Shown in pieces: positions 1,723 to 16,887 of a stretch of 35,886 bases of DNA. The translations under genes and the position numbers were made by a program. This DNA comes from Clostridiales bacterium Firm_05 (lineage in GTDB: Bacteria; Bacillota; Clostridia; Oscillospirales; Ruminococcaceae), in NCBI GenBank assembly GCA_001604035.1, contig LVAK01000052.1, positions 1-35,886 on the forward strand, written 5' to 3'. Each line of letters opens with the position of its first letter. Position 1 is the first letter of the stretch. A model generated the notes under the pieces. It saw nothing but the letters and a program-made list of their open reading frames with translations, ran no database searches and was not told the DNA's origin.

Positions 1723-1734
1723 AGTGCGTCTCCT

Positions 1735-2718
1735 TTATTCTCCGAGCACGAAGGCTTCTACTGTACCGGACATCTCTGTTCCCAGAACCAGTACCTTGCT
1801 GTAGCGCTTGTTCTTTACGAGAACTGATCCGAGTATAACGCTTGATACTGCGCTTGCACCGAAGCTCTCGCCCAGCATATCTCTTGCGTTGATAACTTCA
1901 CATCTGCTGCCGAATATCTCATTTACAGCAGTCTTCTCGTCCTCGCTTACTGATGACTGTGCAATATTTGAAAGAAGTACAAGGTCGATGTCCTCAGCTT
2001 CAAGCTCAGCCTTTCTGAGAGCCTTCTTTATAACTCTTGAATATGCTGATACAACATCTCTGCCTGACTGATAGAGAGGTGAGAAGCCTATACCTGTCTC
2101 TGCGTCTCCGAGGATACGTCCATAGATCTCACGGGCAGAGTCCTCGCTCTCAACTACTACTCCTGCAACACCTTCTGATATAACATCTCCGCCGAATTTC
2201 TTTACTGCTGTTGAAGCAACAGGGCCGCAATATTCATCGCCGCCGCATACTACGATAGCGTTATCCGGCTTCTTCTCGACCTGTCTCATGGAATATGAAA
2301 GAGCATTGCTTCCCATAAGAAGGGTGCTTGGTCCCTTGAGTCCGAAGTAAAGGGCAACATTTCCGAGAGCTGCGTTTGATACTGTATTTGCAAAATCCAT
2401 AGGACTTGCCAGCTCAGGTGTAGGGAGAAGTCTTCCGAATTCGATGTTGAGATTGATCGAACCGTAGTCTGTATTCATGATTATACCTGTATTATCGCCC
2501 TTCTCGCAGCCGGACATCTTCAGGCAGTTATCTGTTACTGCTGCACACATACGTCCGAAGCGTCCCATACGTCTGATCTTTCTCGGATCAAGTGAATGGC
2601 TGAAATCTATCTCGCCGCCTGAGGGCTTTTTTCTGCTGTCCCAGCTGTTGAGTATATCAGACTCTGTGCTGCCCATCTCTGAGATCATTCCCCAGCCGGT
2701 TATTGCTGTTTTGCACAT
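1735..2718 (-). CDS. Ketosynthase-like protein without catalytic Cys (chain-length-factor-like)
   Basis: A 327-residue thiolase-fold protein, shorter than the 396-residue ketosynthase in the same operon. The nucleophile region GPSTLLMGSNALS aligns with the GPVYTTMSACAAG of that ketosynthase and places Asn138 where the Cys should be. The HGTGT and GHCLGAAG histidine motifs are also lost, replaced by LLSNIAQSS and LGESFGASA. It therefore cannot condense by the normal Cys-His-His mechanism. In type II polyketide, aryl polyene and related systems such a partner (KS-beta or chain length factor) dimerises with the active ketosynthase and sets chain length; that role is inferred here from context. 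Start chosen at the ATG after AAAGGATG, 6 bases after the preceding stop. Confidence 0.82.
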   Translation of the reverse strand: MCKTAITGWGMISEMGSTESDILNSWDSRKKPSGGEIDFSHSLDPRKIRRMGRFGRMCAAVTDNCLKMSGCEKGDNTGIIMNTDYGSINLNIEFGRLLPTPELASPMDFANTVSNAALGNVALYFGLKGPSTLLMGSNALSYSMRQVEKKPDNAIVVCGGDEYCGPVASTAVKKFGGDVISEGVAGVVVESEDSAREIYGRILGDAETGIGFSPLYQSGRDVVSAYSRVIKKALRKAELEAEDIDLVLLSNIAQSSVSEDEKTAVNEIFGSRCEVINARDMLGESFGASAVSSVILGSVLVKNKRYSKVLVLGTEMSGTVEAFVLGE

Positions 2719-2724
2719 ACTTCA

Positions 2725-3882: not shown

Positions 3883-3887
3883 TGTCC

Positions 3888-5078: not shown

Positions 5079-5099
5079 ATGCTTACCTCTTACAGGTCA

Positions 5100-5384
5100 T
5101 TATTCCTGACCGTTCTCACGAACATAATCTGCGATGGATGTGATGCTCTGGAAAATACCCATCTCCTCATCACTTACCTCGATGCCGTACTTCTCCTTGA
5201 GGCCTACTACCAGCTCAAGAGCGTCTACTGAGTCAAGTCCGAGGCCGTCGCCCTCTGAGTCGAATGAAGCGAAGATAGGTGCGTCGTAGTCAACATCTTC
5301 CTTGTTGATGTAGTCGATTCTGAGTCTCTCAAAGATCATGTCTCTTACTTCTTCCTCGATGTTTCTGTTTGCAAAATTAGCCAT
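5100..5384 (-). CDS. Acyl carrier protein
   Basis: A 94-residue acidic protein. Ser52 in GLGLDSVDALEL is the phosphopantetheine attachment site, followed by the acidic recognition helix II (ALELVVGLKEKYGIEV). I chose the ATG at 5384-5382 because GGAGGAATTAAC precedes it at good distance; the ATG 15 bases upstream would put that ribosome-binding site inside the coding region. The protein carries growing acyl intermediates as thioesters for the ketosynthase and reductases next to it. It is longer than AcpP (about 77) because of an N-terminal helix and an insert, FASFDSEGDG, before the DSVD motif. An 83-base gap separates it from the upstream gene, the largest inside the operon. Confidence 0.95.
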   Translation of the reverse strand: MANFANRNIEEEVRDMIFERLRIDYINKEDVDYDAPIFASFDSEGDGLGLDSVDALELVVGLKEKYGIEVSDEEMGIFQSITSIADYVRENGQE

Positions 5385-5467
5385 TGTTAATTCCTCCATT
5401 AAATAAATATAGTTTTATAATTTTTTCCCTTTCGGGTATATATTTACACGTCTCTGCGACGGTAAAA
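5385..5467 (-). other. Intra-operon gap before the ACP gene with a small hairpin
   Basis: The 83 bases between the desaturase and ACP genes are very A/T-rich. They hold a short CCC-GAAA-GGG tetraloop hairpin (minus sense), followed by A-runs rather than U-runs, so it is not an intrinsic terminator. It could be an mRNA processing or stabilising element that raises ACP expression. No convincing -35/-10 pair is seen. Confidence 0.3.
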
Positions 5468-7003
5468 TCAAGCTGAATGGTTTTTGCTGAAATCGTATAT
5501 CTCTTCGATATGATCGCAGCGGAGTATCTTGTCTGCAACTCTCATTGCAACATCTGTGGTGAATATCACACCGTCGCCGACCCCTCCCCAGTGTCCGGTG
5601 AGGAACAGTCCGTCTACAAGCTGGCGGCAGTCAAGGAGCGAGAAGTTCTCTACCAGCTCCGGAGTACACTTGTAGCCTCCGAAGGCTCCTTTGCTGTTGC
5701 CGGTATATCTCTGGAATGTGACCGGAGAAGCTATCTCCATCACTTCGATATGCTCGCTGATTCCGGGGAAGAATCTCTCTGCCTTACGCACAAGATTCAT
5801 AGCTGCCGCTTTTTTCTTTTCACGGTAGAGCTTCCTGTCGGTATCACGGAGCTTGTACATATCCTCAAAGTCCCAGTTCACAAGCATTCCCAGCATCATC
5901 TGTCCCTTTCCCTCGGGGCAGGCTGTAGGATCGTTGTTTGCCGAAAGACTTATCAGCAGGAAATCATTTTCTCTCTGGACGCTGTGCTCTCCGATAAGCT
6001 TTGCCTTATCGTCAAGAACGCTCATTGCATCCGGATAATAGGATATATTCTTCGGCTCATAGCCAAGGGACTTTATATCCTTGTCAAGGCCTATCCATAC
6101 CGAGAAGCAGGACGGGCTCTCTGTAAACTTGGTATTTATCTTTTCAAGCACTCGCTGGGGAACATTTTCCTCTCCCACCAGCTCACGTATGGTGAAGCCC
6201 AGGTCGCAGTTGGAAACGATATAGTCTGCTCTGAGTATCTCTCCCTTGCAGACAACTCCGACTGCTCTGCCGTTTTCCATGATTATCCTTTCGGCAGGAC
6301 TGTTCAGGAGCACCCTTCCTCCCAGCTCCTCGATGCGCTTGCGGAGGAGATCGATTATCGCTCCTGCGCCGCCTACGGGCTGGTATGTCTCCTCTCCGCA
6401 GTTTGCGAAGGATACCATTCTTATGAAGGCGAACAGCGCTCCGCCGGGCATTGCATCTGATATGGCTACCAGCAGGCTGATGATCTTCTCATTGGTGAAT
6501 ATGCCTCTCAGGAACTGGTCTACAGACATCTTTCTGTACTTGTCCAGTACCTTCAGGTCAGTCAGCGAGAACTTGCTTATGCCTGCATTAGCACCCTTGT
6601 CAATGATATCCAGTATGGAATTGATCCTGTCCACCTCTGCTTCAAAGCGGTCGATATCCTCCTTGTCCTCCGGGAACAGCTCCCTGAGCGAATCTGCTGC
6701 GCTGGAATTGCACATATTGAAATTGATATCGCCCACCTGAACATTCTCATGGAAGGTGTACCATTCCGGCAGTTCCTTCACTCCAAGAGCACTCAGGATA
6801 CCGTCCACACTGTTCCTGCCGTGGATACCGCCTATCCTGTGGACAGCTGCTGCAAATCTGAAGCCTTTTCTTGAAAAGCTCTGGCAATAGCCGCCGGCTA
6901 CGCTGTGCTTTTCAAGGACCGTCACATCGTAGCCCTTATTCGCCAGCGCACAGGCACAGGTCATTCCGGATATGCCGGAGCCTATAACTACTATTTTCTT
7001 CAT
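5468..7003 (-). CDS. CrtI/phytoene-desaturase-like FAD-dependent oxidoreductase
   Basis: A 511-residue flavoprotein with GSGISG at residues 8-13 and the ribose-binding Glu31 (VTVLEKHS), followed by the GGYCQSFSRKGFRF segment typical of carotenoid desaturases and isomerases. The C-terminal FAD motif LFLTGHWGGVGDGVIFTTDVAMRVAD is intact. The family (CrtI, CrtISO, CrtN) dehydrogenates or isomerises polyene and isoprenoid chains. No prenyl or phytoene synthase is present, so here it more likely introduces or isomerises double bonds in an ACP-derived acyl chain. The start ATG follows AAGGGAGAG, 17 bases after the upstream stop. Family certain; substrate inferred. Confidence 0.87.
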   Translation of the reverse strand: MKKIVVIGSGISGMTCACALANKGYDVTVLEKHSVAGGYCQSFSRKGFRFAAAVHRIGGIHGRNSVDGILSALGVKELPEWYTFHENVQVGDINFNMCNSSAADSLRELFPEDKEDIDRFEAEVDRINSILDIIDKGANAGISKFSLTDLKVLDKYRKMSVDQFLRGIFTNEKIISLLVAISDAMPGGALFAFIRMVSFANCGEETYQPVGGAGAIIDLLRKRIEELGGRVLLNSPAERIIMENGRAVGVVCKGEILRADYIVSNCDLGFTIRELVGEENVPQRVLEKINTKFTESPSCFSVWIGLDKDIKSLGYEPKNISYYPDAMSVLDDKAKLIGEHSVQRENDFLLISLSANNDPTACPEGKGQMMLGMLVNWDFEDMYKLRDTDRKLYREKKKAAAMNLVRKAERFFPGISEHIEVMEIASPVTFQRYTGNSKGAFGGYKCTPELVENFSLLDCRQLVDGLFLTGHWGGVGDGVIFTTDVAMRVADKILRCDHIEEIYDFSKNHSA

Positions 7004-7020
7004 ACATCACTCTCCCTTTG

Positions 7021-7785
7021 TCATTCAGTTTCAGCAAGGAGCGTCTCAAGCATTTTCTGCTCTTTTTTCAGGCACTTGATGAACTCTGCTCCTGACATAT
7101 ATTTCTTTTTGTATAATTCTCTCCAACCGCTTCCAAGACCGAGTATGCTCTCGAATACCTCTCTGCGCTGGTCTGTGAAAGAATCATCTATGCTTACTTT
7201 TACTGAACCGGTAAGATTGCGTGCCAGCTTGCTGCTTATAAAGCATCTGAGACCGGAGACCAGCTTCCTTATGTATACCTTCCGGCAGCTTTCATCCCTG
7301 CTATGCATACTATCGGGGTAGAAGTTGATATCCTCATACACTGCCCAGTCCCTGGTATTCACAAAGGCTGCTGACGCTCTTTTTTCAAGGCTGCGGCCGG
7401 TATGCCACTTGCCGTCGGACAGCTTCCAGAGCCCAAGGCCTGCGATATTTTTAAGGCTGCTGACTCTTTCATATGTGAAGCTGCATTTGTCAGCTGCATC
7501 CTTGTCGTACTTCCTTACGAATACACTGCTGCCGGCTGCCATTTTCTGCTTCAGTCTCCTCAGCTTCTTGCTGCCGAACTTCTGGATCACAGCCTGTATC
7601 TCAAGCTGATAGTATTCCCTTACGATATCCAGCCTGTTCTCAGTAAAAGCCTTTACGGCAAATCTGCTGTGAGATGTCTGGCAGAGATCAAAGGTCAGTC
7701 CCGAACACATAGCAGCTATATCATCAGCGCTCTCATTATCCGGGAACGCCATTGCTATCGCTTTCATCTGAGCGTTCTTGTTCAT
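7021..7785 (-). CDS. Conserved-looking protein of unknown function in the biosynthetic operon
   Basis: I do not recognise this 254-residue protein. It is rich in Lys/Arg, has no signal peptide or membrane segment, and shows no known catalytic motif. A central stretch reads like a substrate-binding or carrier domain (GLGLWKLSDGKWHTGRS), and the C-terminal 40 residues are charged helix. I placed the start at the ATG at 7785-7783 because GGAGGTG lies just upstream and the start overlaps the stop of the BtrH-like gene by 4 bases (ATGA). That tight coupling suggests a complex or consecutive step with the BtrH-like acyltransferase. An upstream in-frame ATG would extend it by 29 residues, deep into the previous gene, which is unlikely. 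Confidence 0.7.
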   Translation of the reverse strand: MNKNAQMKAIAMAFPDNESADDIAAMCSGLTFDLCQTSHSRFAVKAFTENRLDIVREYYQLEIQAVIQKFGSKKLRRLKQKMAAGSSVFVRKYDKDAADKCSFTYERVSSLKNIAGLGLWKLSDGKWHTGRSLEKRASAAFVNTRDWAVYEDINFYPDSMHSRDESCRKVYIRKLVSGLRCFISSKLARNLTGSVKVSIDDSFTDQRREVFESILGLGSGWRELYKKKYMSGAEFIKCLKKEQKMLETLLAETE

Positions 7786-8822
7786 GCTGCAAACACCTCC
7801 CTGAGACCTTCTATAGCCTGCTCCTCCTTGGATCTTATACCGCTCAGGAGCTCTATGGTAGCTTCGCCGCACATACGCTCCTCAACTGACAGATCCTTTT
7901 TCATTACTCTGGCTGCAAATTTGTTCCAGAGATAATCGGAGCCGGAAAGAAGTCTGCTTATTTCGGCTATCTCCTTTTCCTTTCCGATATAAGGCACACA
8001 CTCCATAAGGAACTTGCCGTACATCTTCCGGAACATTCCGGGTGATACGAATTTTATAAGGCTGCCGGTTATTTCAAGTGATACCCGGCATATTGTCTTT
8101 CCGCAGCTTTCAGGCAGCTCCGGGAAGCGCTCCATGAACCTTGTGAATGCCTTCATTCCAAGGCGTTCATTGCCTCCGTCCAGGTACTCCTTGAGGTTGC
8201 CTCTTACGGCTCTGTATATCATTCCCTCAACATCCGCCCGGCTCATATCTGCCGGAAGGACTATATGATGTATCCTGTGATGAGGATCAAGATAGGAATC
8301 CGAACCGATATCCCTTGCTTTTGAAAATACCTCTCTGGGTATGCTGTAGATCTCGCTGCTGTAATTTTCACAGATGTAAACGTTTTCCTGATCTATGCCG
8401 ATTATCTCAGTCACATGGCTGGTAACAGGCAGATCCAGCTTGAAATCCTTCCAGAGCGACGCCTTGCTGCCGAGATGATCTGCATATACCTCCGGAGATA
8501 CCTCACATATCACCGGATTGTCCTCCAGCCTGAGCATTGACTCCAGCTTTGAGAAGTCGTTGTCGGCCTCGGATACTATCCTGTAGTCCACTCCTGCATT
8601 CTGAGCGAAATGCTCGAACTGCATAAGATTCGGGGCAAGGGCCTTGAAAAATTTGTTCTCTGAGAATATCCCGCCGGGATCAACATACGAGAAGCTTAGT
8701 CCGCCTGCAAGGCCGAACACGAACTCCTCCTTTACCGTAAGTCCGCAGCGTTCAAGGGTATCCCTTATCGCAACGGTCCGGCAGGATTTTCCCTGGGTAT
8801 GTTTAAAGTTCTCTAAAATCAT
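7782..8822 (-). CDS. BtrH-like acyltransferase (BtrH_N domain plus C-terminal DUF4872-type region)
   Basis: A 346-residue protein whose N-terminal half looks like the butirosin BtrH N-terminal domain: Cys14 in GKSCRTVAIRD at the expected nucleophile position, then a G-L-x-x-E-E-F-x-F-G-L-A-G-G-L-x-F-x-Y pattern (residues 27-47). A catalytic-type His is plausible in LPVTSHVTEIIGI (about 133-145). BtrH moves an acyl group from an acyl carrier protein onto an amine acceptor, so this protein could unload the ACP of this operon onto an amino compound or peptide. It overlaps the permease gene by 20 bases, and its ATG follows GGAGAAG within that gene. The family call rests on pattern memory and needs an HMM check. 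Confidence 0.65.
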   Translation of the reverse strand: MILENFKHTQGKSCRTVAIRDTLERCGLTVKEEFVFGLAGGLSFSYVDPGGIFSENKFFKALAPNLMQFEHFAQNAGVDYRIVSEADNDFSKLESMLRLEDNPVICEVSPEVYADHLGSKASLWKDFKLDLPVTSHVTEIIGIDQENVYICENYSSEIYSIPREVFSKARDIGSDSYLDPHHRIHHIVLPADMSRADVEGMIYRAVRGNLKEYLDGGNERLGMKAFTRFMERFPELPESCGKTICRVSLEITGSLIKFVSPGMFRKMYGKFLMECVPYIGKEKEIAEISRLLSGSDYLWNKFAARVMKKDLSVEERMCGEATIELLSGIRSKEEQAIEGLREVFAA

Positions 8823-11016
8823 TGAGTATCTTCTCCATATTTCCGTTGTGCTTTAAGCGAAGCACCAGCATTGTACCGAAGTATACGATGAATGTCATAA
8901 GAACGGCAAATCCAATGCCCACTGCGTCAAGATCAGACGGATATCTCACTCCCGAAGCCTTTACTGCAATAGAGCAGATAAGGTTGAGGATGAAGAATGA
9001 GTACGGTATGCTTATGATGATGCCTAAAAGAAGGAATCCGTTGTATGAACCATAGACCATGCGGTTCATGATCTTGTTCTTTATGCCGTTTGCCTTGAAT
9101 ACATATATCTCCTTCTTGTTCTGGGATATGAGTACGGAAACGGTAACTGCTATCAGTATAACAGGGATGAGTATTCCAAGAACTCCGAGTATGATCGAGC
9201 CATACTTCATTACCTGCTGTGAGCTCTCATAGCTTTCGAGGATGCTGCTCTTTGTAAGTACAGACGAATAGTTCTCGCTGCTGTCCACAGTTATAGAAGC
9301 ATCTGAGGTGAACATACCGTTGTACTTGTTTTCGATGACATTTTCTCCTGCCAGCCATGCATGGTCAATGAAGATCTCCTTGCCGGCAACACGGTCTGAT
9401 ATGCCTGCCACCTTGACTTCGATCTCCTTGTCATAGATCTCCAGCTTTATATTGTCGCCCTTTTTAGCCTTGAGCACATCTGCGGAGGTCTTGTTGAGTA
9501 TAGCCTCTCCGGCAGACGGATGTCCGCCGATGTCCAGCAGCGCACCGTCTTCCAGTGCTGTAACTGTCACGATAACGTCATCCTTCTTGCCCTTTCCCAT
9601 TGCCTTGAGCTCGTAGAAGTACTGATCGCCCTCTGTTGACTTTTCAGCCGGCTGACGGAAGTACACCTGCGACTCAAAATCCATGGATTCTTCCTGTGCG
9701 TCGCATATATTCTTCGGGAAGCGGTATATCGAATAGCTGAGGAAGAACTCTACGCCTGCTGCAAAGACACTGAACAGTACCAGTACCAGCAGGAGCTTGC
9801 TCCTTATGGCAAATGATGTCTTGATCTTCTTCTCTATGCTGCTCTTTTTTGTGAGCTTCTTCACGAATCTCTCAAATCTGCTGATACCCGTTACCTTTGT
9901 GTCACGGAGCATATCCACAACACTGAGCTTAAGTATGCTGCGTGTACCGAATACTGCTGCGATTATACCTACAAAGAGGACTATCCACATGAATACGCCA
10001 AAGAACAGCGGTTCAAAACTGAACTTCATCTCCGGGAGACTCAGATCGGTCTCAAGGAGCCTGTTGAATACCGGTGCAAACAGTGAACCGGTGATATAGC
10101 CTGCAACAGCAGCCGGAAGCATAAGTCCTGCAACTGCTTTAAGATATCCGAAGAATACCTTTCTCCTGGGCAGTCCGTTCGCTACCAGTACGCCCACGTT
10201 CTTCTTGTTCTCGCCAATGAGGATATAGATGAACATTATCAGCATAACTGCTATCATAACTGACATGATGCAAAGTGAGATAACTGTGAGCATGAAGTAT
10301 ATGCTTATCTTTCCGCCAAGAGCATTAATATTGGAATTGTCAGCCCTGAAGGTAACGGAAGCAAGCTCTCTGCTCCTTACCAGCTCTGATGTATGATCGC
10401 TGATCTTCTCATCGCTTATGTCCTTGAACTTAGCCTTGTACACTACAGACAGCTTTCCGCCCTCTATAGCTGCGGTATCCTCTGCTGAAGCCATTATAAG
10501 AGCTTCATTTTCCGGATCATAGCTGAGTGAATCATTTCTTACGTGCATACGGATATAATCCGGAAGAGTCATTATACCTGCGACTTTATAGCTTTTGCCG
10601 CTGATAGTAACAGTATCTGCTGCCGAGATATCATGCTTGTCTGCATATTCCTTGTTTACAAGGATCTCTCCTGCTGCAGAAAGGCTGTTTCCGTCGGTAA
10701 TATGAGGCTTGTCGATCTTTTCGGCAGATGATATCACCCTGTAGCTCACTCCGTCCGAAACGAGCTCGTTGATGTATCTTTCCTCATAGTCAAGGTCGTA
10801 TTTTGCCGCCAGAGCCTCAACGTCAGTCCCCTCTGCCGGAACGAATTCCAGATCCTCCGCATTGGTCTCACTGAAATAATCATCCTGGAACTTGTTGTTT
10901 GCAGAATACAGGTTCACAGACATTGACGCTACGAACATCCAGAGGAATGTAAGAAGGACTATACCTGCGGTCTGTATCTTTTTCTTCGAGAAACTGCGGG
11001 ATATCATTTTATTCAT
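8803..11016 (-). CDS. ABC transporter permease, FtsX/MacB family
   Basis: A 737-residue membrane protein of FtsX architecture: an N-terminal transmembrane helix (about residues 17-35), a large extracytoplasmic domain, then three helices around 240-360, a second extracytoplasmic domain, and a final set around 600-725. It matches the duplicated 8-10 helix permeases that pair with LolD/MacB ATPases to move lipids, peptides or antibiotics outwards. I chose the ATG at 11016-11014. A GTG 9 bases upstream lies inside the GGAGGTG ribosome-binding site and is not credible as a start. The gene follows its ATPase closely (14-base gap). It probably exports the cluster product, or possibly the 11-residue peptides. 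Confidence 0.88.
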   Translation of the reverse strand: MNKMISRSFSKKKIQTAGIVLLTFLWMFVASMSVNLYSANNKFQDDYFSETNAEDLEFVPAEGTDVEALAAKYDLDYEERYINELVSDGVSYRVISSAEKIDKPHITDGNSLSAAGEILVNKEYADKHDISAADTVTISGKSYKVAGIMTLPDYIRMHVRNDSLSYDPENEALIMASAEDTAAIEGGKLSVVYKAKFKDISDEKISDHTSELVRSRELASVTFRADNSNINALGGKISIYFMLTVISLCIMSVMIAVMLIMFIYILIGENKKNVGVLVANGLPRRKVFFGYLKAVAGLMLPAAVAGYITGSLFAPVFNRLLETDLSLPEMKFSFEPLFFGVFMWIVLFVGIIAAVFGTRSILKLSVVDMLRDTKVTGISRFERFVKKLTKKSSIEKKIKTSFAIRSKLLLVLVLFSVFAAGVEFFLSYSIYRFPKNICDAQEESMDFESQVYFRQPAEKSTEGDQYFYELKAMGKGKKDDVIVTVTALEDGALLDIGGHPSAGEAILNKTSADVLKAKKGDNIKLEIYDKEIEVKVAGISDRVAGKEIFIDHAWLAGENVIENKYNGMFTSDASITVDSSENYSSVLTKSSILESYESSQQVMKYGSIILGVLGILIPVILIAVTVSVLISQNKKEIYVFKANGIKNKIMNRMVYGSYNGFLLLGIIISIPYSFFILNLICSIAVKASGVRYPSDLDAVGIGFAVLMTFIVYFGTMLVLRLKHNGNMEKILNDFREL

Positions 11017-11030
11017 AGGCTGCACCTCCG

Positions 11031-11732
11031 TCAGTTCCAGAGAACATCTTCAGCTTCGATAGTTTTGGTGTTCCTGATGTCCTCTTTGATCTCGCCGTCG
11101 ATCACACGGATCACATGGTCTGCCATTTTCTGCATACCAAGAAGGTGTGTAACGACGATGACAGTTGTTCCACGGCGGTTAAGATCCTGGAGTATGCGGA
11201 GAACGTTCTTGCCGTTCTTCTCGTCAAGAGCTCCTGTTGGCTCATCGCAGAAGAGTATAGCCGGCTCCTTTGCGAGAGCTCTTGCGATAGCTACACGCTG
11301 CTTTTCGCCGCCTGAGAGCTGTCCGGGGAACTTGTCGCCCTGTTTTTCCATACCTACAAGGCTCAGAGCCTTATCTGCGTCACATTTTTTCTTTGTGACC
11401 ACACTCATGACCTCGATATTCTCCTTTACGGTAAGGTTCTCGATGAGTGAGTAGTCCTGGAATACGAAGCCGATCTTTCTGCGGTAGTCATTGAGCGCCT
11501 TTTCACGGGACTTGCTGAGCTTGAAGCCTGCGCTCTCAACATCGCCTGATGTAGAGGAATCAAGTCCGCCAAGGATATTGAGCAGAGTGGATTTTCCGGC
11601 TCCGCTTGGACCTACGATGACTACGAATTCGCCGTCTTCTATTTTAAGGTCTATGTTCTTGAGAAGCTGCTGTGATACCTCTCCGGTCTTCACAGTCTTG
11701 TTCAGCTTGCTTACGCTGCAGATCTTTTTCAT
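11031..11732 (-). CDS. ABC transporter ATPase, MacB/LolD type
   Basis: A 233-residue nucleotide-binding subunit with Walker A GPSGAGKST (41-49), Q-loop Gln92, signature LSGGEKQ (139-145) and Walker B ILFCDEPTGALD (159-170), followed by the H-loop TVIVVTH. The TGALD sequence after Walker B and the lack of fused membrane segments place it with ATPases of FtsX-type exporters. Its start ATG overlaps the aminotransferase stop by one base (TAATG). The permease follows at once, so the pair forms one exporter. Confidence 0.95.
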   Translation of the reverse strand: MKKICSVSKLNKTVKTGEVSQQLLKNIDLKIEDGEFVVIVGPSGAGKSTLLNILGGLDSSTSGDVESAGFKLSKSREKALNDYRRKIGFVFQDYSLIENLTVKENIEVMSVVTKKKCDADKALSLVGMEKQGDKFPGQLSGGEKQRVAIARALAKEPAILFCDEPTGALDEKNGKNVLRILQDLNRRGTTVIVVTHLLGMQKMADHVIRVIDGEIKEDIRNTKTIEAEDVLWN

Positions 11733-13054
11733 TATTTATCTCTCCTTTTCACGCATTTTTCCAGCTTTCCGATACAGTCCCTGAGTATATCAGCGATATT
11801 GTCACATTCGTTTCTGCTTATATTCAGCACCGGTGCAACTATCATCGTATCCGGTCCGTCCGGATACAGAAGAAGTCCGCTGCCTGCCGCAAAATTTGTG
11901 AGTATATCCGCAATGCCGAACTCCGGCATACCTATTATCTGATAATCATTGAAAAGTATGGAAAGCATCAGGCCTTTTCCTCTGATCTCATCAACGAGGA
12001 AGCTTCCGCCCAGCTCATCCTTCAGTCTGCCGAGAAGGTATTCGCCCATTTCTGCTGAATTTTCCGACATATTCTCTCTTTCGAGTATCTCGATATTCTT
12101 CAGCGCTGCTGCACATCCCACCGGATGTCCGCCGGTAGTGAAGCCGTTTTCAAGGAGCTTTTCCGAGCCTCCTGCAAATGCCTCATATACCTCTTTTACG
12201 GCGAGCACACCTCCCATGGGGAAATATCCGGAGGTCACTCCCTTAGCAAACATCATAAGGTCTCCCCTGATGCCGTAATGCTCGGAGGCGAACATTTTTC
12301 CTGTTCTTCCGAAGCCTGTGGCCACCTCATCGACTACTACCAGCACACCGTTTTTCTTGCTGATATCGTACATTCCCTTTACGAAGCTCTCCGGAAGGAT
12401 ATTAACACCGTTTGAAAGCTGTATCAGCTCCATGAACACTGCTCCTATCTCCTTTGTGCGGATAAGCTCTTCGTACTGGGCAAGGCATTTTCCAATCTCC
12501 TCGTCATCGCTCTCGTATGAAGGAACATCTATCTGATAGTAGCCTGAGCAGTCATTGAAGTACTGTTCGTTTTCGTACTGTCCCTGACCAAGCTTCATTG
12601 CTGTCAGGTTCGAGCCGTGGTAAGCGCCCTTCAGGGAAACTATACCGCATTCCTTCATGCCCTTCATGTAAGAATACTTCTTTACGATCTTCACTGCTGT
12701 ATCGCAGGCCTCAGAGCCGCTGTTAGTGAAAAAGCAGCTGTAGTAATGATCGCCTGTAAGCTTACAGAGTTTTTCGGAGCATCTCAGTGCCGCATCGTTT
12801 GTAGTAGTAAAGAGCGTTGTATTGTCAAGGCGGAAGAACTGTTCGTTCACTGCTTCGATAAGCTCTTTGTTGCAGTGGCCGATATTCGCATTGAGGAGCG
12901 TTGATACTCCGTCATACATTTTCTTTCCCTTGCTGTCTGTGTAATAATTATCCGTATCAACATCTGTCAGAACACGGTAGCTCTTTTCAAGATATACCTT
13001 CATATCCTTGAAAGCTGCCCAGACCTTGTTTCCTGCTTCTTTTGAAAAGTCCAT
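11732..13054 (-). CDS. Class III PLP-dependent aminotransferase
   Basis: A 440-residue fold-type I enzyme. NSGSEA is at 111-116, the cofactor-binding Asp242 in VVVDEVATGFGRTG, and the Schiff-base Lys271 in FAKGVTSG, as in ornithine/GABA/7,8-diaminopelargonate-type omega-aminotransferases. It moves an amino group to an aldehyde or ketone. I chose the ATG at 13054 because GGAGGCTTACAG precedes it; the upstream in-frame ATGs lack a ribosome-binding site. It is the first gene after the LytTR-type promoter at 13132-13197, hence first in the biosynthetic operon. It may build an amine acceptor for the BtrH-like transferase or install a terminal amine on the acyl chain; both are inference. Confidence 0.92.
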   Translation of the reverse strand: MDFSKEAGNKVWAAFKDMKVYLEKSYRVLTDVDTDNYYTDSKGKKMYDGVSTLLNANIGHCNKELIEAVNEQFFRLDNTTLFTTTNDAALRCSEKLCKLTGDHYYSCFFTNSGSEACDTAVKIVKKYSYMKGMKECGIVSLKGAYHGSNLTAMKLGQGQYENEQYFNDCSGYYQIDVPSYESDDEEIGKCLAQYEELIRTKEIGAVFMELIQLSNGVNILPESFVKGMYDISKKNGVLVVVDEVATGFGRTGKMFASEHYGIRGDLMMFAKGVTSGYFPMGGVLAVKEVYEAFAGGSEKLLENGFTTGGHPVGCAAALKNIEILERENMSENSAEMGEYLLGRLKDELGGSFLVDEIRGKGLMLSILFNDYQIIGMPEFGIADILTNFAAGSGLLLYPDGPDTMIVAPVLNISRNECDNIADILRDCIGKLEKCVKRRDK

Positions 13055-13131
13055 CTGTAAGCCTCCTGATGAATCGTTTGCGGAAATCATCTGTATCATT
13101 GCTGCACAGTGTTTTCCGTTTCTGTGATCTT

Positions 13132-13197
13132 ATTATAGCCCCTGCATCCGGGATCAACAACTAAAAACGAGTGAGTAAAACTTTTTTCGGAGTAAAC
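13132..13197 (-). promoter_or_regulatory. LytTR-type operator and promoter of the biosynthetic operon
   Basis: Minus-strand promoter: -10 TATAAT at 13132-13137, 17-bp spacer, -35 TTGTTG at 13155-13160. The operator half-sites, in plus-strand reading, are CGAGTGAGT (13168-13176, degenerate) and GGAGTAAAC (13189-13197), 21 bp apart. The half-site nearer the promoter ends 30 bp from the -10, the same distance as in front of the peptide genes. It reads into the aminotransferase gene about 75 bases downstream. Confidence 0.85.
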
Positions 13198-13332: not shown

Positions 13333-13368
13333 GAAATAAAATCGGTTCCGCAGCTCCTGCGAAACCGA
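13333..13368 (-). terminator. Rho-independent terminator after peptide gene 1
   Basis: In the minus-strand transcript, a 12-bp stem (plus-strand arms TCGGTTCCGCAG at 13342-13353 and CTGCGAAACCGA at 13357-13368, one G-U pair) with a 3-base loop is followed by TTTTATTT. It should stop peptide 1 transcription before the biosynthetic operon promoter. Confidence 0.85.
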
Positions 13369-13404: not shown

Positions 13405-13440
13405 TTATCTTCCGAAGATGAAATCCCAGAATCCGCCCAT
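13405..13440 (-). CDS. Peptide gene 1: 11-residue peptide MGGFWDFIFGR
   Basis: A minute open reading frame: ATG at 13440-13438, TAA at 13407-13405, preceded by AAGGAAG at normal distance. It encodes MGGFWDFIFGR, identical to two other genes at 13702-13737 and 13985-14020. Four aromatic residues plus Ile give a hydrophobic core with one Asp and a C-terminal Arg. There is no leader, no double-glycine cleavage site and no Cys. It sits between its own LytTR-controlled promoter and its own terminator. Likely a secreted signal for the adjacent AgrC-like kinase, a small membrane-active peptide, or a peptide acceptor for the cluster's acyl chain. Coding status rests on conservation; the function is unknown. 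Confidence 0.8.
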   Translation of the reverse strand: MGGFWDFIFGR

Positions 13441-13492
13441 TTTCAGCACTTCCTTCCGTATGTTTTTTCAACGTTTCCGTTTCGTTGTGCTT

Positions 13493-13558
13493 ATTATATT
13501 TCATATTTTCCGTTCCCTCAATCGATATGGAGTAAACGAAACTTTTTCCGGAGTAAAC
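13493..13558 (-). promoter_or_regulatory. LytTR-type operator and promoter of peptide gene 1
   Basis: -10 TATAAT at 13493-13498, 17-bp spacer, -35 TTGAGG at 13516-13521 (minus strand). Operator repeats GGAGTAAAC (plus reading) are at 13529-13537 and 13550-13558, a perfect 9-N12-9 direct repeat. The near repeat ends 30 bp from the -10 and 7 bp from the -35, typical for an activator touching RNA polymerase. Confidence 0.9.
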
Positions 13559-13579
13559 AAGAATAATACTGCTCAAGGC

Positions 13580-13618
13580 AAAAAATATCCGGATGTTTTA
13601 ATATCCGGATGATTTTTT
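13580..13618. terminator. Hairpin with A/T runs on both sides, possible bidirectional terminator
   Basis: Arms ATCCGGAT at 13587-13594 and 13603-13610 are flanked by an A-run on the left and a T-run on the right, so either strand could terminate here. It backs up the peptide 2 terminator and insulates peptide 1's operator. Confidence 0.75.
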
Positions 13619-13628
13619 CATTTTCTGC

Positions 13629-13664
13629 AAATAAAAATCGGTTCCGCCACAGCAGCGAAACCGA
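13629..13664 (-). terminator. Rho-independent terminator after peptide gene 2
   Basis: Stem arms TCGGTTCCGC (13638-13647) and GCGAAACCGA (13655-13664), followed on the minus strand by ATTTTTATTT. It is homologous to the terminator after peptide 1 but has a changed loop. Confidence 0.85.
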
Positions 13665-13701
13665 AGTTATATCACTCTCCGGCACAGCTGCCGGCTCATT
13701 C

Positions 13702-13737
13702 TTATCTTCCGAAGATGAAATCCCAGAATCCGCCCAT
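13702..13737 (-). CDS. Peptide gene 2: 11-residue peptide MGGFWDFIFGR
   Basis: ATG at 13737-13735, TAA at 13704-13702, with the same AAGGAAG ribosome-binding site and identical codons as peptide gene 1. It has its own operator-promoter (13790-13855) and terminator (13629-13664). Being a 297-bp tandem duplicate, it adds gene dosage of the same peptide rather than a variant, as expected when the amount of a signal or product matters. Confidence 0.8.
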   Translation of the reverse strand: MGGFWDFIFGR

Positions 13738-13789
13738 TTTTAGCACTTCCTTCCGTATGTTTTTTCAACGTTTCCGTTTCGTTGTGCTT

Positions 13790-13855
13790 ATTATATTTCA
13801 TATTTCCCGTTCCCTCAATCGATATGGAGTAAATGAGACTTTTTCCGGAGTAAAC
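13790..13855 (-). promoter_or_regulatory. LytTR-type operator and promoter of peptide gene 2
   Basis: -10 TATAAT at 13790-13795, 17-bp spacer, -35 TTGAGG at 13813-13818 (minus strand). Operator repeats are GGAGTAAAT (13826-13834) and GGAGTAAAC (13847-13855), 21 bp apart and 30 bp from the -10. Confidence 0.9.
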
Positions 13856-13874
13856 AAGAACTATATTGCTCATG

Positions 13875-13916
13875 GTAAAAAAATATCCGGATATATCGTC
13901 ATCCGGATAATTTTTT
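13875..13916. terminator. Hairpin terminator downstream of peptide gene 3
   Basis: Arms TATCCGGAT (13884-13892) and ATCCGGATA (13901-13909) with an 8-base loop. The minus-strand transcript of peptide 3 meets it with a following T-run, and the plus strand also has a T-run, so it may work both ways. Confidence 0.75.
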
Positions 13917-13937
13917 GTATAATCTACCAGCAAGCCA

Positions 13938-13966
13938 TTGACAGGCGGTAGAATTTGTGGTAAAAT
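13938..13966 (+). promoter_or_regulatory. Plus-strand promoter, probably for the response regulator
   Basis: TTGACA at 13938-13943, 17-bp spacer, TAAAAT at 13961-13966. The transcript would start near 13973 and run antisense through peptide gene 3 into the regulator gene at 14180, giving a roughly 205-base leader. A second weaker candidate is TTGACT-N16-TATAGT at 14062-14089. Confidence 0.65.
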
Positions 13967-13984
13967 TTAATGAGAGTTTATTTT

Positions 13985-14020
13985 TTATCTTCCAAAGATA
14001 AAATCCCAGAATCCGCCCAT
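13985..14020 (-). CDS. Peptide gene 3: 11-residue peptide MGGFWDFIFGR
   Basis: ATG at 14020-14018, TAA at 13987-13985, ribosome-binding site AAAGGAG. The peptide is identical to copies 1 and 2, but the DNA differs at two bases, both TTC to TTT Phe codons. The surrounding leader and downstream sequence are unrelated to units A and B. Sequence kept only at the protein level is good evidence that the frame is translated. It is the copy closest to the regulator gene and is overlapped by the antisense promoter at 13938. Confidence 0.83.
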   Translation of the reverse strand: MGGFWDFIFGR

Positions 14021-14069: not shown

Positions 14070-14135
14070 ATTCTACCACTCTCTATAGTCCCCGGCAACT
14101 TAATCAGAGTAAACCGACATTTTTTTGGAGTAAAC
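14070..14135 (-). promoter_or_regulatory. LytTR-type operator and promoter of peptide gene 3
   Basis: -10 TAGAAT at 14070-14075, 17-bp spacer, -35 TTGCCG at 14093-14098 (minus strand). Operator repeats are AGAGTAAAC (14106-14114) and GGAGTAAAC (14127-14135). The 30-bp distance to the -10 is kept although the sequence between is unrelated to the other copies. The operator also lies 45-74 bases upstream of the regulator's start codon, so bound regulator could block its own transcription. Confidence 0.88.
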
Positions 14136-14179: not shown

Positions 14180-14890
14180 ATGAAGATAGCAATTTGTGAT
14201 GATAAGGCAGCTATGCGGAAAGACCTGAAAAAACATCTCGAAGATTATGCAATAAAAAGACGGCTCGATCTTGTATACGACGATTACAGCAACGGCTCTG
14301 ACCTTCTTGCAAGCCCTATCGAATACGATGTAATATTTATGGACTATCAGATGGACGGCCTGGACGGCCTCGAAACCTCTCGCAAGCTCAGGGACAAAAA
14401 TATCAAGGCTGTTATAATTTTCCTGACAAGCTTCCCGCATATAGTCTTCGATGCATTTGAAGTGAACACATACCGCTTCCTGCTGAAGCCTATAGACGCA
14501 GAAAAGCTTGCTTCAGCTATGGATGACTACCTGCTGAGTCTGGATGACAGCCACTATATAGTAATAAAGACCGACGACGACAACCGGAGGATAAATATCG
14601 ATGACATAATATATGCCGAAGCTTCTGATAAATATTGCTATATCAGAACGGCTGATGAGAATATCCTCTACAAGAACACTCTTTCAGAATTTGAAAAGCT
14701 GCTGCCTCAGGATTCCTTCTTCCGAAGCCACAGAACGTATCTGGTCGGCTTCAAGCATATCGTTTCACATACTGCGGCAAATATACTTTTCGATAATAAG
14801 GAGCGTGCCCTTATCAGCAAGCTGAAGTATACTCCTTTCAAAAAGGCTTTTCTGGACTATGTAAAGCGCTACAACTTCTCAAAGGGCTGA
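14180..14890 (+). CDS. LytTR-family response regulator (AgrA-like)
   Basis: A 236-residue two-domain regulator. The receiver domain (1-120) has the acidic pair Asp7-Asp8, phospho-acceptor Asp55 in VIFMDYQMDG, the conserved Thr/Ser of FLTS, and Lys in LLKPID. The C-terminal LytTR domain starts near residue 127 (YIVIKTDDDNRRINIDDIIY) and contains the usual FFRSHRTYLVGFKHI. LytTR proteins bind pairs of 9-bp direct repeats with 12-bp spacing, which is what lies in front of the three peptide genes, the biosynthetic operon and the 16.7-kb gene. The ATG follows AAAGGACA. The kinase gene follows after 4 bases. Confidence 0.95.
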   Translation: MKIAICDDKAAMRKDLKKHLEDYAIKRRLDLVYDDYSNGSDLLASPIEYDVIFMDYQMDGLDGLETSRKLRDKNIKAVIIFLTSFPHIVFDAFEVNTYRFLLKPIDAEKLASAMDDYLLSLDDSHYIVIKTDDDNRRINIDDIIYAEASDKYCYIRTADENILYKNTLSEFEKLLPQDSFFRSHRTYLVGFKHIVSHTAANILFDNKERALISKLKYTPFKKAFLDYVKRYNFSKG

Positions 14891-14894
14891 GATC

Positions 14895-16184
14895 ATGGAA
14901 TACATCGTATACTTTATATCAAACTTTATACTATGCTCAGCAATATTCAGATCAATGTGCGTGTTCCTGAAGATGAAGCCGGCTCACGGACGGATATTCA
15001 ATACAGTATGCCTGCTGATGTGTTCACTCACATCTGTTTCAGTACTTCTCCCGGCATCGTCTATACCGCCGGTGCTGAGAGTATTCATAGTGCTGCTGGC
15101 CATAACAGGAAAAATGATATTCTTCTCGCTTATATTCGGGAAGCTCAACCTTAAGCTGATATATGTCTGCCTGCTGTCAATGGTCACCAGCTCAAATTAC
15201 GACACAATCCTAACCCTGCTGATACCTGACAAGACCTGGCGCAGTATCGCAGCCTTCCTGCTGGAAGCTTCGATCCTGGGAACTGTGCTCATATACACCA
15301 AAAAGAAGGACCTGCGGGATATATTCTATGAATATATCAGAATGCTTCCAAAGAAGCTCTATGCGGTTATACTCATATTCCTGTATGTTATGAACCTGGT
15401 GATATTCGCATCCATAGATCCGAAATACGGCGACATCTCCAAAGTGATGCTGCTTCCGGCCTTTATATTCATGACAATAATCGTCTACTGGGTACTAAAG
15501 GTCAGCATATCCGAACACGAGAACAAACAGGTATCGTATATACTCTCAAAGCAGCTCGAAACTCAGGTCGGCTACTACGAGAAGATCAACAGCATATATA
15601 CTGAATTCAGGAGCTTCCGCCATGACTTCAAGAACCATCTCCTCTGTCTCAGAAGCCTGCTGGCAGAGAATGAAGTCGAAAACGCCCTTGAATATATGAA
15701 CGACATAGAAAATATGTCCTACACCGAAAAAAAGAACTTTGATACAGGAAATATCATTGCAGACGCACTTCTGAGCGATAAGAACGAGAAGGCTGCCGCC
15801 TGCAACTCAAGGATAACCTTCAGCGGATATGTCCCTACAAACGGAATATCTAACACCGATCTCTGCACTATTATGGCAAATGCCCTCGATAACGCTATCG
15901 AAGCCTGTGCCAAGGATACAAGCAGCGATATAAAGGAGATAAAGGTCGAGTCCGACTTTAAACAGGGATATTTCTTCTTTAAGGCCATAAATCCGGTATT
16001 TGAAAAGGTGGATATCAAAAACGGCAACGAACTGAAAACTTCAAAGGATGATAAGACCTGTCATGGATTCGGCGTGGCTAACATAGTCAAGACCGCTAAA
16101 AAATACAACGGTTCCGCTCAGGCATCAGTATCCGACAACAAATTCATCCTCGAAACAGAGCTCCTGCTCAACAGGGAGATATAA
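14895..16184 (+). CDS. AgrC-like GHKL sensor histidine kinase
   Basis: A 429-residue HPK10-type kinase. About six or seven transmembrane segments fill residues 1-205, forming the polytopic sensor typical of peptide-pheromone receptors. His243 in SFRHDFKNHLL is the phosphorylation site. The GHKL ATPase domain has the N-box NALDNAIEAC and the G-box GFGVANI. It should phosphorylate the adjacent LytTR regulator. No AgrB-type peptide-processing protease and no AgrD precursor are seen here; the 11-residue peptides are the natural ligand candidates, by position only. The gene ends in front of a strong terminator. Confidence 0.94.
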   Translation: MEYIVYFISNFILCSAIFRSMCVFLKMKPAHGRIFNTVCLLMCSLTSVSVLLPASSIPPVLRVFIVLLAITGKMIFFSLIFGKLNLKLIYVCLLSMVTSSNYDTILTLLIPDKTWRSIAAFLLEASILGTVLIYTKKKDLRDIFYEYIRMLPKKLYAVILIFLYVMNLVIFASIDPKYGDISKVMLLPAFIFMTIIVYWVLKVSISEHENKQVSYILSKQLETQVGYYEKINSIYTEFRSFRHDFKNHLLCLRSLLAENEVENALEYMNDIENMSYTEKKNFDTGNIIADALLSDKNEKAAACNSRITFSGYVPTNGISNTDLCTIMANALDNAIEACAKDTSSDIKEIKVESDFKQGYFFFKAINPVFEKVDIKNGNELKTSKDDKTCHGFGVANIVKTAKKYNGSAQASVSDNKFILETELLLNREI

Positions 16185-16262: not shown

Positions 16263-16709
16263 CTACAGCTTGTTGTAATTCGTTCCTATATAAATATCTA
16301 CGATACAGTCCGACGGATTTTCCGCCAGCCTTACAATATTATAATAGGGTCTTGTTATCATTTCATAGGATTTTTTCCGGATATAATCCTCAAGCTTTTT
16401 TTCAGTAGTATCGATATCAGCAAGGCTGCCCTCATGTCTGATGGTGACAGCGTTTATCAGCCGGAAAAGCTCTTTATGGCCGTATTCACTATGATCCGTG
16501 ATATCACCGATGACCGGAACAAGTATCTCGATATCCTTATTCTCATCTGTCGGATACGTAAAGCAGATCTTCTTTGTAGGTTCAACTCCTAATGCGGATA
16601 CATTCCGGCAGATATGATCCGCCAGCTTCGGAATATCCTCCTTAGGAAGATTTGTCCTGTATGAGATCATGTTTTCCATAAATAGGGAACGGTTTTCAAG
16701 TATCTGCAA
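16263..16709 (-). CDS. Unknown 148-residue protein, probable member of the LytTR regulon
   Basis: I do not firmly recognise this protein. It has no signal peptide or membrane segment. Alternating beta/alpha character and the segment around EILVPVIGDITDH recall the AraC-effector-binding/GyrI-like fold or DUF5085-type proteins, a weak resemblance. The start is taken as TTG at 16709-16707, which has AGGTGGTG upstream; an ATG 10 codons in is the alternative. Its promoter at 16822-16887 carries the same operator geometry as the peptide genes, so it is probably switched on with them. It could be an immunity, ligand-binding or tailoring protein, but nothing in the sequence decides. Confidence 0.7.
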   Translation of the reverse strand: MQILENRSLFMENMISYRTNLPKEDIPKLADHICRNVSALGVEPTKKICFTYPTDENKDIEILVPVIGDITDHSEYGHKELFRLINAVTIRHEGSLADIDTTEKKLEDYIRKKSYEMITRPYYNIVRLAENPSDCIVDIYIGTNYNKL

Positions 16710-16821: not shown

Positions 16822-16887
16822 ATTTTACATATATATAGCCTCCCCGTCACCTATTTTTCCGTGAATGGCCCTTTTATAAGAGTAAAC
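16822..16887 (-). promoter_or_regulatory. Fifth LytTR-type operator and promoter (upstream of the 148-residue gene)
   Basis: -10 TAAAAT at 16822-16827, 17-bp spacer, -35 GTGACG at 16845-16850 (minus strand). The distal repeat AGAGTAAAC (16879-16887) is intact; the near repeat (16858-16866) keeps only the GT-AA core. Spacing of 21 bp and 30 bp is the same as at the other four sites. The leader from here to 16709 is about 105 bases. The remaining bases 16888-17064 hold no gene, only an AGCACCCA/TGGGTGCT inverted repeat (16969-17015). Confidence 0.7.

What the first reader, a model, noticed from the sequence alone, without database searches (positions are those of the whole stretch)
13405..14020. 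Three tandem genes for the same 11-residue peptide MGGFWDFIFGR
Seen directly: minus-strand frames at 13405-13440, 13702-13737 and 13985-14020 encode the identical peptide, each with a Shine-Dalgarno sequence, its own promoter and its own terminator. Copy 3 differs only at two Phe codons (TTC to TTT); one of these changes spoils a small palindrome (ATCTTC-C-GAAGAT) without compensation, which speaks for coding rather than RNA structure. The peptide has no leader, Cys or double glycine, so it does not look like ComC, AgrD or a lanthipeptide precursor. I know of no described peptide family like it. Position next to an AgrC/AgrA-like pair suggests a leaderless pheromone; a small membrane-active peptide or an acyl acceptor are alternatives.
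Basis: partly seen in the sequence, partly recalled or inferred. Interest (0 to 1): 0.95.

Follow-up and report, generated by a model that had tools for sequence, protein, structure and literature searches.

The report
Tiny leaderless peptide signals in Ruminococcus
Three tiny genes for one 11-residue peptide belong to a wider, fast-changing family of very short peptides that sit beside a sensor-kinase pair in rumen and gut bacteria and probably act as chemical signals that switch on antibacterial weapons, without the leader, protease or dedicated exporter that known signals of this type use.

Summary
In detail: MGGFWDFIFGR is encoded three times, each copy with its own ribosome site, promoter-like and terminator-like sites, and a LytTR-type direct repeat. 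It is one member of an unannotated family. Among 22 loci encoding orthologues of the neighbouring AgrC-type kinase and LytTR regulator (near-identical ones removed), 21 carry a divergent 7-24-residue ORF with a strong Shine-Dalgarno sequence, against 8 of 136 control regions. Sequences differ between strains but share aromatic residues and a hydrophobic-[DE]-hydrophobic core (19 of 20 distinct, 7.2 expected). The direct repeat precedes the regulator in 20 of 22. In R. albus 7 the module sits on plasmid pRUMAL03 with huazacin-family RiPP genes. Direct repeats also precede the acyl cluster here, and, in relatives, RiPP-like precursors, secreted wall hydrolases and a conserved GyrI-fold protein. 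No AgrB lies at the locus. Best reading: leaderless micropheromone quorum sensing that controls antagonism (0.72). Secretion, receptor binding and pheromone activity are inferred, not shown. The acyl-acceptor idea is rejected. Ten searches of open papers showed no description.

The parts
13405..13440 (-). micro-ORF copy 1, MGGFWDFIFGR
   Evidence: Shine-Dalgarno AAGGA
13702..13737 (-). micro-ORF copy 2, MGGFWDFIFGR
   Evidence: Shine-Dalgarno AAGGA; tandem duplicate of copy 1
13985..14020 (-). micro-ORF copy 3, MGGFWDFIFGR; position shared with the relatives
   Evidence: Shine-Dalgarno AGGAG, 159 nt from the regulator start
13530..13558 (+). LytTR-type direct repeat (21-bp period) before copy 1
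13827..13855 (+). LytTR-type direct repeat before copy 2
14107..14135 (+). LytTR-type direct repeat before copy 3, between it and the regulator gene
13169..13197 (+). LytTR-type direct repeat before the aminotransferase and biosynthetic genes
   Evidence: 1 mismatch; 0 mismatches to a looser pattern
16859..16887 (+). degenerate direct repeat (2 mismatches) before the GyrI-like gene; uncertain, a level at which chance matches are common in this genome
   Evidence: read
13342..13368 (-). terminator-like hairpin of copy 1
13638..13664 (-). terminator-like hairpin of copy 2
13884..13909 (-). terminator-like hairpin of copy 3
13938..13966 (+). predicted promoter of the regulator-kinase genes (TTGACA-17-TAAAAT, TG before the second hexamer) lying 3' of copy 3, so its transcript would be antisense to copy 3
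   Evidence: similar layout in 18 of 21 loci (no shuffle control)
14180..14890 (+). LytTR response regulator
   Evidence: Pfam Response_reg and LytTR
14895..16184 (+). AgrC-type GHKL sensor kinase, 7 predicted hydrophobic segments, no evident extracellular domain
16263..16709 (-). 148-aa GyrI-like protein, conserved partner
   Evidence: Pfam GyrI-like E 0.0036, 18.0 bits, below cut-off 26; AlphaFold pLDDT 87 and Foldseek matches to GyrI-fold drug-binding proteins; in 19 of 33 loci
278..13099 (-). cargo: fatty-acid/polyketide-like cluster (SDRs, two ketosynthases, ACP, CrtI-like, BtrH-like, ABC pair, class III aminotransferase; the latter probably starts near 13054)

Best explanation
The three genes encode a leaderless micropheromone, translated directly as MGGFWDFIFGR (perhaps N-formylated). 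The peptide leaves the cell by a route not encoded in the conserved part of the locus, builds up, and is bound in the membrane by the AgrC-type kinase encoded next door. The kinase phosphorylates the LytTR regulator, which binds the 21-bp-period direct repeats and activates the three pheromone genes (positive feedback), the biosynthetic operon starting at the aminotransferase and probably the GyrI-like gene. The GyrI-like protein may bind the hydrophobic peptide in the cytoplasm, as immunity or as a threshold buffer. SHOWN by sequence: micro-ORFs with ribosome sites, conservation of position and chemistry, direct repeats, linkage to kinase, regulator and GyrI-fold protein, no AgrB at the locus. 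INFERRED: translation, secretion, receptor binding, positive autoregulation, role of the GyrI-like protein.
For: Divergent micro-ORF with strong ribosome site in 21 of 22 orthologous loci against 8 of 136 other upstream regions, composition-blind (on the same strand 2 of 22). Composition-aware test, set after seeing the peptides: 20 of 20 core loci, or 20 of 21 with L073, which that call counted among the rest, against 0.51 expected from shuffles and 1 of 129 control regions. Direct repeat with at most 1 mismatch in the 420 nt before the regulator in 20 of 22 loci, 0.1 expected. Motif [FWILVY][DE][FWILVY] in 19 of 20 distinct core peptides, 7.2 expected. Strain-specific variants: R. flavefaciens FD-1, 007c, XPD3002 and ND2009 and R. 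albus AR67, KH2T6 and 7 all differ. Copy 3 protein kept within diverged flanks. Kinase profile's only PDB match at E 0.001 is S. aureus AgrC. Cargo under direct repeats (at most 1 mismatch) in relatives: RiPP-like precursors, glucosaminidase, lysozyme, M15 peptidase; in R. albus 7 the module is on the plasmid that carries two huazacin-family precursors, a radical-SAM maturase and a second radical-SAM-like protein. Peptide distance follows sensor-domain distance beyond kinase-domain distance in 28 loci (partial r 0.29, P 0.0002), but see against.
Against: No expression, peptide detection or activity is known. No conserved exporter or protease gene among the neighbours. The kinase-peptide covariation disappears when loci with sensors over 60% identical are thinned (21 loci: sensor given kinase P 0.20, kinase given sensor P 0.055). 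L073 has regulator, kinase and GyrI-like gene but no divergent micro-ORF. L060 and L073 lack a clear direct repeat. L054/L076 (G002, a weaker kinase relative) has no such micro-ORF. In G170 copy 3 has lost its start codon, although another copy is intact. In G024 the frame runs 9 residues further. Of 61 other kinase relatives only 13 have a qualifying micro-ORF (1.54 expected), some of which look like chance (L088, L109), so it is not a property of the whole kinase family. Perfect repeats without an obvious target exist (L146 1990, L068 9573, L073 1502).
Confidence: 0.72

Rival explanations
1. The peptide is a membrane-active micro-toxin or leaderless bacteriocin (PSM-like) that the two-component system switches on in response to another cue; the GyrI-like protein is its immunity factor.
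For: Aromatic, hydrophobic peptides of 7-24 residues; GyrI-fold partner resembles the albicidin-resistance protein STM3175 and CtaZ in complex with closthioamide; a second micro-ORF MWLWPWLP lies under a direct repeat before the huazacin genes of R. albus 7.
Against: Fixed position beside kinase and regulator, hypervariability between strains, and cargo that in several loci already encodes separate antimicrobials or wall hydrolases; 7-8 residues is very short for a pore former.
Confidence: 0.14
2. A cell-autonomous feedback peptide: it stays in the producing cell and tunes its kinase from inside, as small proteins such as MgrB do for PhoQ (recalled), with no communication.
For: No leader and no conserved exporter among the neighbours; direct repeats before the micro-ORFs as before the likely targets.
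Against: Far shorter than a membrane span; strain-to-strain diversification is typical of pheromones, not of feedback peptides (general knowledge).
Confidence: 0.09
3. The conserved element is RNA: the micro-ORF transcript acts as an antisense RNA on the regulator leader, the peptide being incidental.
For: A predicted regulator promoter lies 0-144 nt 3' of the micro-ORF and would read through it antisense in 18 of 21 loci (no shuffle control).
Against: Copies 1 and 2 are not opposite the predicted regulator leader; only synonymous changes in copy 3 within diverged flanks; conserved amino-acid pattern; in L070 and L057 the predicted regulator promoter lies elsewhere; no Rfam hit reaches its gathering score (best is SR1, 29.1 bits of 45).
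Confidence: 0.03
4. The peptide is an acyl acceptor or RiPP substrate of the neighbouring acyl cluster.
For: Adjacent to a BtrH-like acyltransferase, ketosynthases and aminotransferase.
Against: G024 has the micro-ORF, kinase and ABC pair without the acyl genes in the 20 kb fetched and has no BtrH-like match; 19 of 21 related stretches show no homologue of the acyl-cluster enzymes, though some stretches are cut by contig ends.
Confidence: 0.02

Closest known systems
Agr (AgrBDCA) quorum sensing
   Same: AgrC-type GHKL kinase with polytopic membrane sensor, LytTR regulator, 21-bp-period direct repeats (layout of AgrA sites recalled), short hydrophobic signal, strain-specific variants
   Different: No AgrB at the locus; the candidate signal has no leader, no thiolactone Cys and no C-terminal recognition tail (Agr features recalled)
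ComCDE / Blp-type bacteriocin-inducing pheromone systems (recalled)
   Same: Kinase-LytTR pair next to its candidate signal gene and antimicrobial genes
   Different: No double-glycine leader; 7-24 residues encoded directly; no exporter conserved among the neighbours
SIP-RopB of Streptococcus pyogenes (PMC6565748; abstract and passages seen)
   Same: Eight-residue leaderless secreted peptide signal
   Different: SIP is re-imported and bound by an intracellular receptor; here the candidate receptor is a membrane kinase with a LytTR regulator
Phenol-soluble modulins and leaderless bacteriocins (recalled; PMC6131525 seen in search listings only)
   Same: Leaderless, hydrophobic, presumably formylated
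   Different: Longer, membrane-active, with dedicated transporters; not known as ligands of an adjacent kinase
GyrI-like drug-binding proteins (CtaZ, STM3175, CTR107, EcmrR)
   Same: Predicted fold of the 148-aa partner
   Different: 11-17% sequence identity in the best matches; kept with a signalling module whatever its cargo

Membership tests
Agr quorum sensing | AgrB membrane protease encoded with the signal | tested here: not met
   PF04647 search of 16 of the 17 genomes with a close kinase: 4 (G024, G170, G034, G162) have no match at E 0.001, 12 have one, 10 over the cut-off, and no match lies at the peptide locus (nearest on the same contig about 91 kb away, G044). The own genome has one marginal match on another contig (22.6 bits, counted over the cut-off with its neighbours)
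Agr quorum sensing | AgrD precursor with leader, thiolactone Cys and acidic C-terminal tail | tested here: not met
   20 distinct core peptides, 7-24 residues, hold one Cys in all
Agr quorum sensing | AgrC-type kinase and LytTR regulator | tested here: inconclusive
   HATPase_c_5, SPOB_a, Response_reg and LytTR above Pfam cut-offs; NCBIfam staphylococcal AgrC model 27.9 bits of 500 required; only PDB profile match is AgrC
ComC/Blp double-glycine pheromones | double-glycine leader | tested here: not met
   Peptides of 7-24 residues without a leader
ComC/Blp double-glycine pheromones | peptidase-containing ABC exporter | tested here: inconclusive
   Among 33 loci a mixed ABC-ATPase family in 11; only regulator, kinase and GyrI-like protein are in more. 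Genomes were not searched for a peptidase-ABC elsewhere
SIP-like leaderless signals | short leaderless peptide gene | tested here: met
SIP-like leaderless signals | cytoplasmic Rgg/RRNPP receptor encoded next to the signal | tested here: not met
   The conserved neighbours are LytTR regulator and GHKL kinase, in 33 and 32 of 33 loci
Peptide quorum sensing in general | secreted peptide activates its cognate receptor | not testable with these tools
   needs experiment
GyrI-like domain (PF06445) | profile match above the curated cut-off | tested here: not met
   18.0 bits of 26; the predicted fold agrees, so filed as GyrI-like fold only

The most novel reading that the evidence does not exclude
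A separate class of peptide quorum sensing in rumen and gut Clostridia: the ribosome makes the finished 7-24-residue signal, with no leader, maturation protease or dedicated exporter; a membrane AgrC-type kinase reads it; a GyrI-fold cytoplasmic protein binds it before export and sets immunity or threshold; and the signal gene lies opposite the leader of its own regulator, so that sense and antisense transcription sharpen the switch. It drives diverse antibacterial cargo and has diversified into many strain-specific dialects.
Probability: 0.4. Interest if true: 0.92.

Novelty: new variant of a known kind. Interest (0 to 1): 0.86.

Why it matters
If true, a layer of cell-cell signalling in Ruminococcus (key fibre degraders of rumen and gut) has been missed because its signal genes are too short to be annotated. 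It gives synthesizable peptides that could be used to switch on silent antibacterial clusters, for example the huazacin locus of R. albus 7, and a simple system for how membrane kinases read unmodified peptides. It also predicts that other orphan AgrC-LytTR pairs have hidden micro-ORF partners.

Tried and rejected
Acyl-acceptor or RiPP-substrate idea: rejected because G024 and 19 of 21 related stretches (G024 among them) show no homologue of the acyl-cluster enzymes. Peptide as AgrD or ComC: rejected. RNA element: no Rfam hit reaches its gathering score; the SR1-like hit at 13877-13992 (29.1 bits of 45, E 0.0023) is taken as chance. Conserved exporter: none among the neighbours; the FtsX-type permease of the window recurs only in three close loci. 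Viral carriers: 8 weak kinase relatives in viral contigs and 46 phage records with kinase hits under 60% identity; not followed. Ketosynthase stretch against plasmids: no match. Genome-wide LytTR regulon: at up to 2 mismatches 19 matches against 24 for the reversed pattern, and two of the three one-mismatch matches lie on other contigs, so I rely only on the sites of this window. No chance expectation was computed for the repeats before cargo genes in relatives (17 sequences scanned) nor for the antisense promoters. Kinase-peptide covariation: significant on 28 loci and in a core of 19 (P 0.026), not after thinning; one search used a shortened form of the L059 peptide and is superseded. Foldseek on the kinase model (pTM 0.50): the 50 rows shown are mostly kinase domains, AgrC first; nothing on the sensor. 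Literature: ten searches over open-licence PMC papers; the listings showed no description of this family; subscription papers and preprints were not searched. Rows dropped before the core count: L038, L058, L046, L069, L072 and L045 as duplicates or near-duplicates, and L005, L042, L044, L047, L048, L050, which are the same loci as L059, L061, L063, L065, L067, L070; close relatives such as window/L059/L039 and L040/L041/L063 were kept. L055 was not tested for lack of a regulator on its short contig. The second G081 locus was not fetched. L087, L069 and L093 were left out of the covariation test for lack of a usable kinase frame.

Full report
Observation. The three minus-strand frames exist exactly where stated and encode the same 11 residues. 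Copies 1 and 2 belong to a tandem duplication, 204 nt at 93%. Copy 3 agrees with the others at 34 of 36 coding bases, both differences synonymous, while its 88 upstream bases align at 55 of 96-97 columns and its downstream bases at about half. That is what selection on the protein looks like. Each copy has promoter- and terminator-like sites. The own genome has no further match to the pattern.

Control sites. Each copy is preceded by a direct repeat GAGTRAAY-N13-GAGTRAAY (21-bp period), the form of LytTR-family binding sites (general knowledge). The three zero-mismatch matches in the 2.97-Mb genome are these three; a one-mismatch site (13169) precedes the aminotransferase that opens the biosynthetic operon. 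Two other one-mismatch matches lie on other contigs, and with two mismatches allowed the genome-wide count is no higher than for the reversed pattern (19 against 24).

Relatives. The exact peptide pattern occurs in 2 of 149 genomes including the own one; the other, G024, has peptide, regulator, kinase, ABC pair and GyrI-like gene but, in the 20 kb fetched, not the acyl genes. In the genus, 54 of 125 genomes have a kinase match at E 1e-20 and 17 of 125 one at 39% identity or more. Divergent to the regulator, about 100-430 nt away, stand short frames: MTWSTIIDFLFG, MTWSTILDFLFGNK (R. flavefaciens 007c), MWDWLFG (XPD3002), MIWEWIFG, MGDFLDWLFGGRK (ND2009), MEEAIIFGLWDWIKNGGNGNGGNN (FD-1), MQYWFDLWGWNF (R. 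albus AR67), MQDWFDFWGWFL (KH2T6), MFGWWDW (YE71) and others. In two close relatives the window's own peptide recurs: G167 twice, G170 once plus a decayed copy that lost its start codon. Two of the weaker relatives gave none: G002 has no such frame and the short G066 contig shows no regulator.

Chance. A composition-blind test (ATG, 6-25 codons, ribosome site of at least five bases, 60-450 nt upstream, opposite strand) finds a frame in 21 of 22 core loci and in 8 of 136 upstream regions of other genes of the same loci; on the same strand 2 of 22; the exception is L073; for L039 (G170) the frame counted is its intact distal copy. A test that also asks for Trp and aromatic residues gives 20 of 20 core loci (20 of 21 with L073, which that call counted among the rest), 0.51 expected from dinucleotide shuffles, 0 of 20 on the same strand and 1 of 129 control regions; among the 61 other kinase relatives 13 pass, 1.54 expected, with 2 on the same strand. 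The second test was set after seeing the peptides. A motif hydrophobic-[DE]-hydrophobic is in 19 of 20 distinct core peptides against 7.2 when residues are shuffled within peptides, and in 5 of 5 of a second group (1.8 expected); a third group that includes R. bromii YE282 (MYMYFVRFLHWLCG) has it in 1 of 6, and 4 of its 6 carry a net positive charge. The direct repeat with at most one mismatch lies within 420 nt before the regulator in 20 of 22 core loci (0.1 expected from shuffles); L060 and L073 lack it; of 11 extended loci 2 pass.

Module. Over 33 loci the regulator is found in 33, the kinase in 32 and the 148-aa protein in 19; an ABC-ATPase family, mixed in kind, is in 11; the next families are in 5 or fewer. 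Of the 22 core loci 18 have the 148-aa protein; L043, L049, L067 and L068 do not, L049 and L067 being cut by contig ends. It scores below the Pfam GyrI cut-off, but its AlphaFold model (pLDDT 87) matches GyrI-fold drug binders: rhodamine-binding CTR107, albicidin-resistance protein STM3175, EcmrR, CtaZ with closthioamide. A direct repeat with at most one mismatch lies before it in L040, L041, L063, L064, L066, L070 and L146; in the window the repeat has two mismatches. Because it accompanies the module whatever the cargo, its natural ligand may be the peptide; this is inference.

Kinase. Seven hydrophobic segments in the window's kinase (six or seven in three others) and a helical membrane part without a folded extracellular domain in the model (pLDDT 79, pTM 0.50), GHKL and SPOB_a domains; its profile's only PDB match is the S. 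aureus AgrC kinase module. AgrB gives no match at E 0.001 in 4 of the 16 module-bearing genomes searched and lies at the locus in none.

Antisense layout. In 18 of 21 loci a predicted promoter (up to two mismatches, 16-19 nt spacer allowed) for the regulator lies 0-144 nt beyond the 3' end of the micro-ORF, so the regulator transcript would run antisense to it; L059 (overlaps a lengthened frame), L051 (312 nt) and L070 (between) differ; most non-core loci do not share it clearly. No shuffle control was run. This might sharpen the switch; untested.

Cargo. In R. albus 7 the module is on plasmid pRUMAL03 (NC_014826.1): MQDWFDWWGW, regulator WP_013483955.1, kinase WP_013483956.1, GyrI-like WP_013483957.1 (its match to the family profile), two annotated huazacin-family precursors, a radical-SAM maturase and a second radical-SAM-like protein just below the Pfam cut-off. 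Direct repeats there precede the micro-ORF, the GyrI-like gene (one mismatch) and a second micro-ORF, MWLWPWLP, about 0.5 kb before the huazacin genes; a further one at 1990 has no evident target. Elsewhere repeats precede a 39-aa Cys-rich RiPP-like precursor (L062; L065, where a radical-SAM/SPASM gene follows on the same contig, read as L047), a glucosaminidase (L063), a phage-type lysozyme (L064), an M15 peptidase (L071) and a 124-aa protein without Pfam match (L060); secretion signals were judged by eye. In the window the cargo is the acyl cluster; its BtrH-like gene was found in 1 of 100 genus genomes searched, the own one, but G167 and G170, not among those 100, have it. The common theme is interbacterial antagonism; that is an interpretation.

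Covariation. Peptide distance follows sensor distance after removing kinase distance in 28 loci (partial r 0.29, P 0.0002), not the reverse (r 0.06, P 0.27); in 19 core loci P is 0.026 and 0.089. After thinning to 21 loci with sensors under 60% identical the signal is gone (r 0.09, P 0.20) and the reverse is the larger (r 0.22, P 0.055). It is weak support at best.

Known work. SIP of S. pyogenes shows that an 8-residue leaderless peptide can be a secreted signal, but it is re-imported and read by the intracellular RopB (PMC6565748, abstract and passages). A survey of two-component quorum sensing places AgrC and ComD in the LytTR family (PMC8895600, passages only). The listings of ten searches showed no account of the present family.

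Verdict. A conserved, unannotated peptide-gene family tied to an AgrC-type kinase and LytTR regulator (near certain from sequence); most likely a leaderless micropheromone system (0.72). It works like Agr and Com systems but fails their membership tests.

Noticed in passing
window 17385-29672: Element-like region with Mob_Pre-type relaxase (27229-28425), tyrosine integrase (28536-29672), D12 adenine methyltransferase (19737-20639) and AAA ATPase (18170-19762) between the signalling locus and what look by eye like ribosomal-protein genes (29790-30638); G024 also has a Mob_Pre-type frame about 6 kb beyond its kinase gene (L005 13923-15059). The module may travel with mobile DNA.
   Followed up: partly
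L146 about 9145-9171, plus strand: Second micro-ORF MWLWPWLP, 77 nt after a perfect direct repeat and about 0.5 kb before the huazacin genes of R. albus 7: second signal or effector?
   Followed up: no
window 16762-16791, minus strand: Possible 9-codon frame MIWKEAEEK before the GyrI-like gene, with its AGGAGG about 18 nt from the start, too far for a normal ribosome site (read by eye).
   Followed up: no
window 278-13099: Fatty-acid/polyketide-like cluster with two ketosynthases, CrtI-like oxidoreductase, BtrH/DarH-like acyltransferase and class III aminotransferase; two proteins (2725-3882, 7021-7785) have no Pfam match. Product unknown, possibly an amino-lipid or polyene.
   Followed up: partly
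L039 (G170), copy 3 position: Decayed copy with mostly C/G to T/A changes over copy 3 and its surroundings, while the other copy is intact.
   Followed up: no
L065 200-316 and 964-1080: Two identical 39-aa Cys-rich RiPP-like precursors ending ICGGGCWGIGCVG, no NCBIfam match (38 aa given); a radical-SAM/SPASM gene follows on the same contig (L047 6184-7506).
   Followed up: partly
window 31081-31818, minus strand: Lipoprotein with three Lipoprotein_Ltp repeats (PF07553).
   Followed up: no
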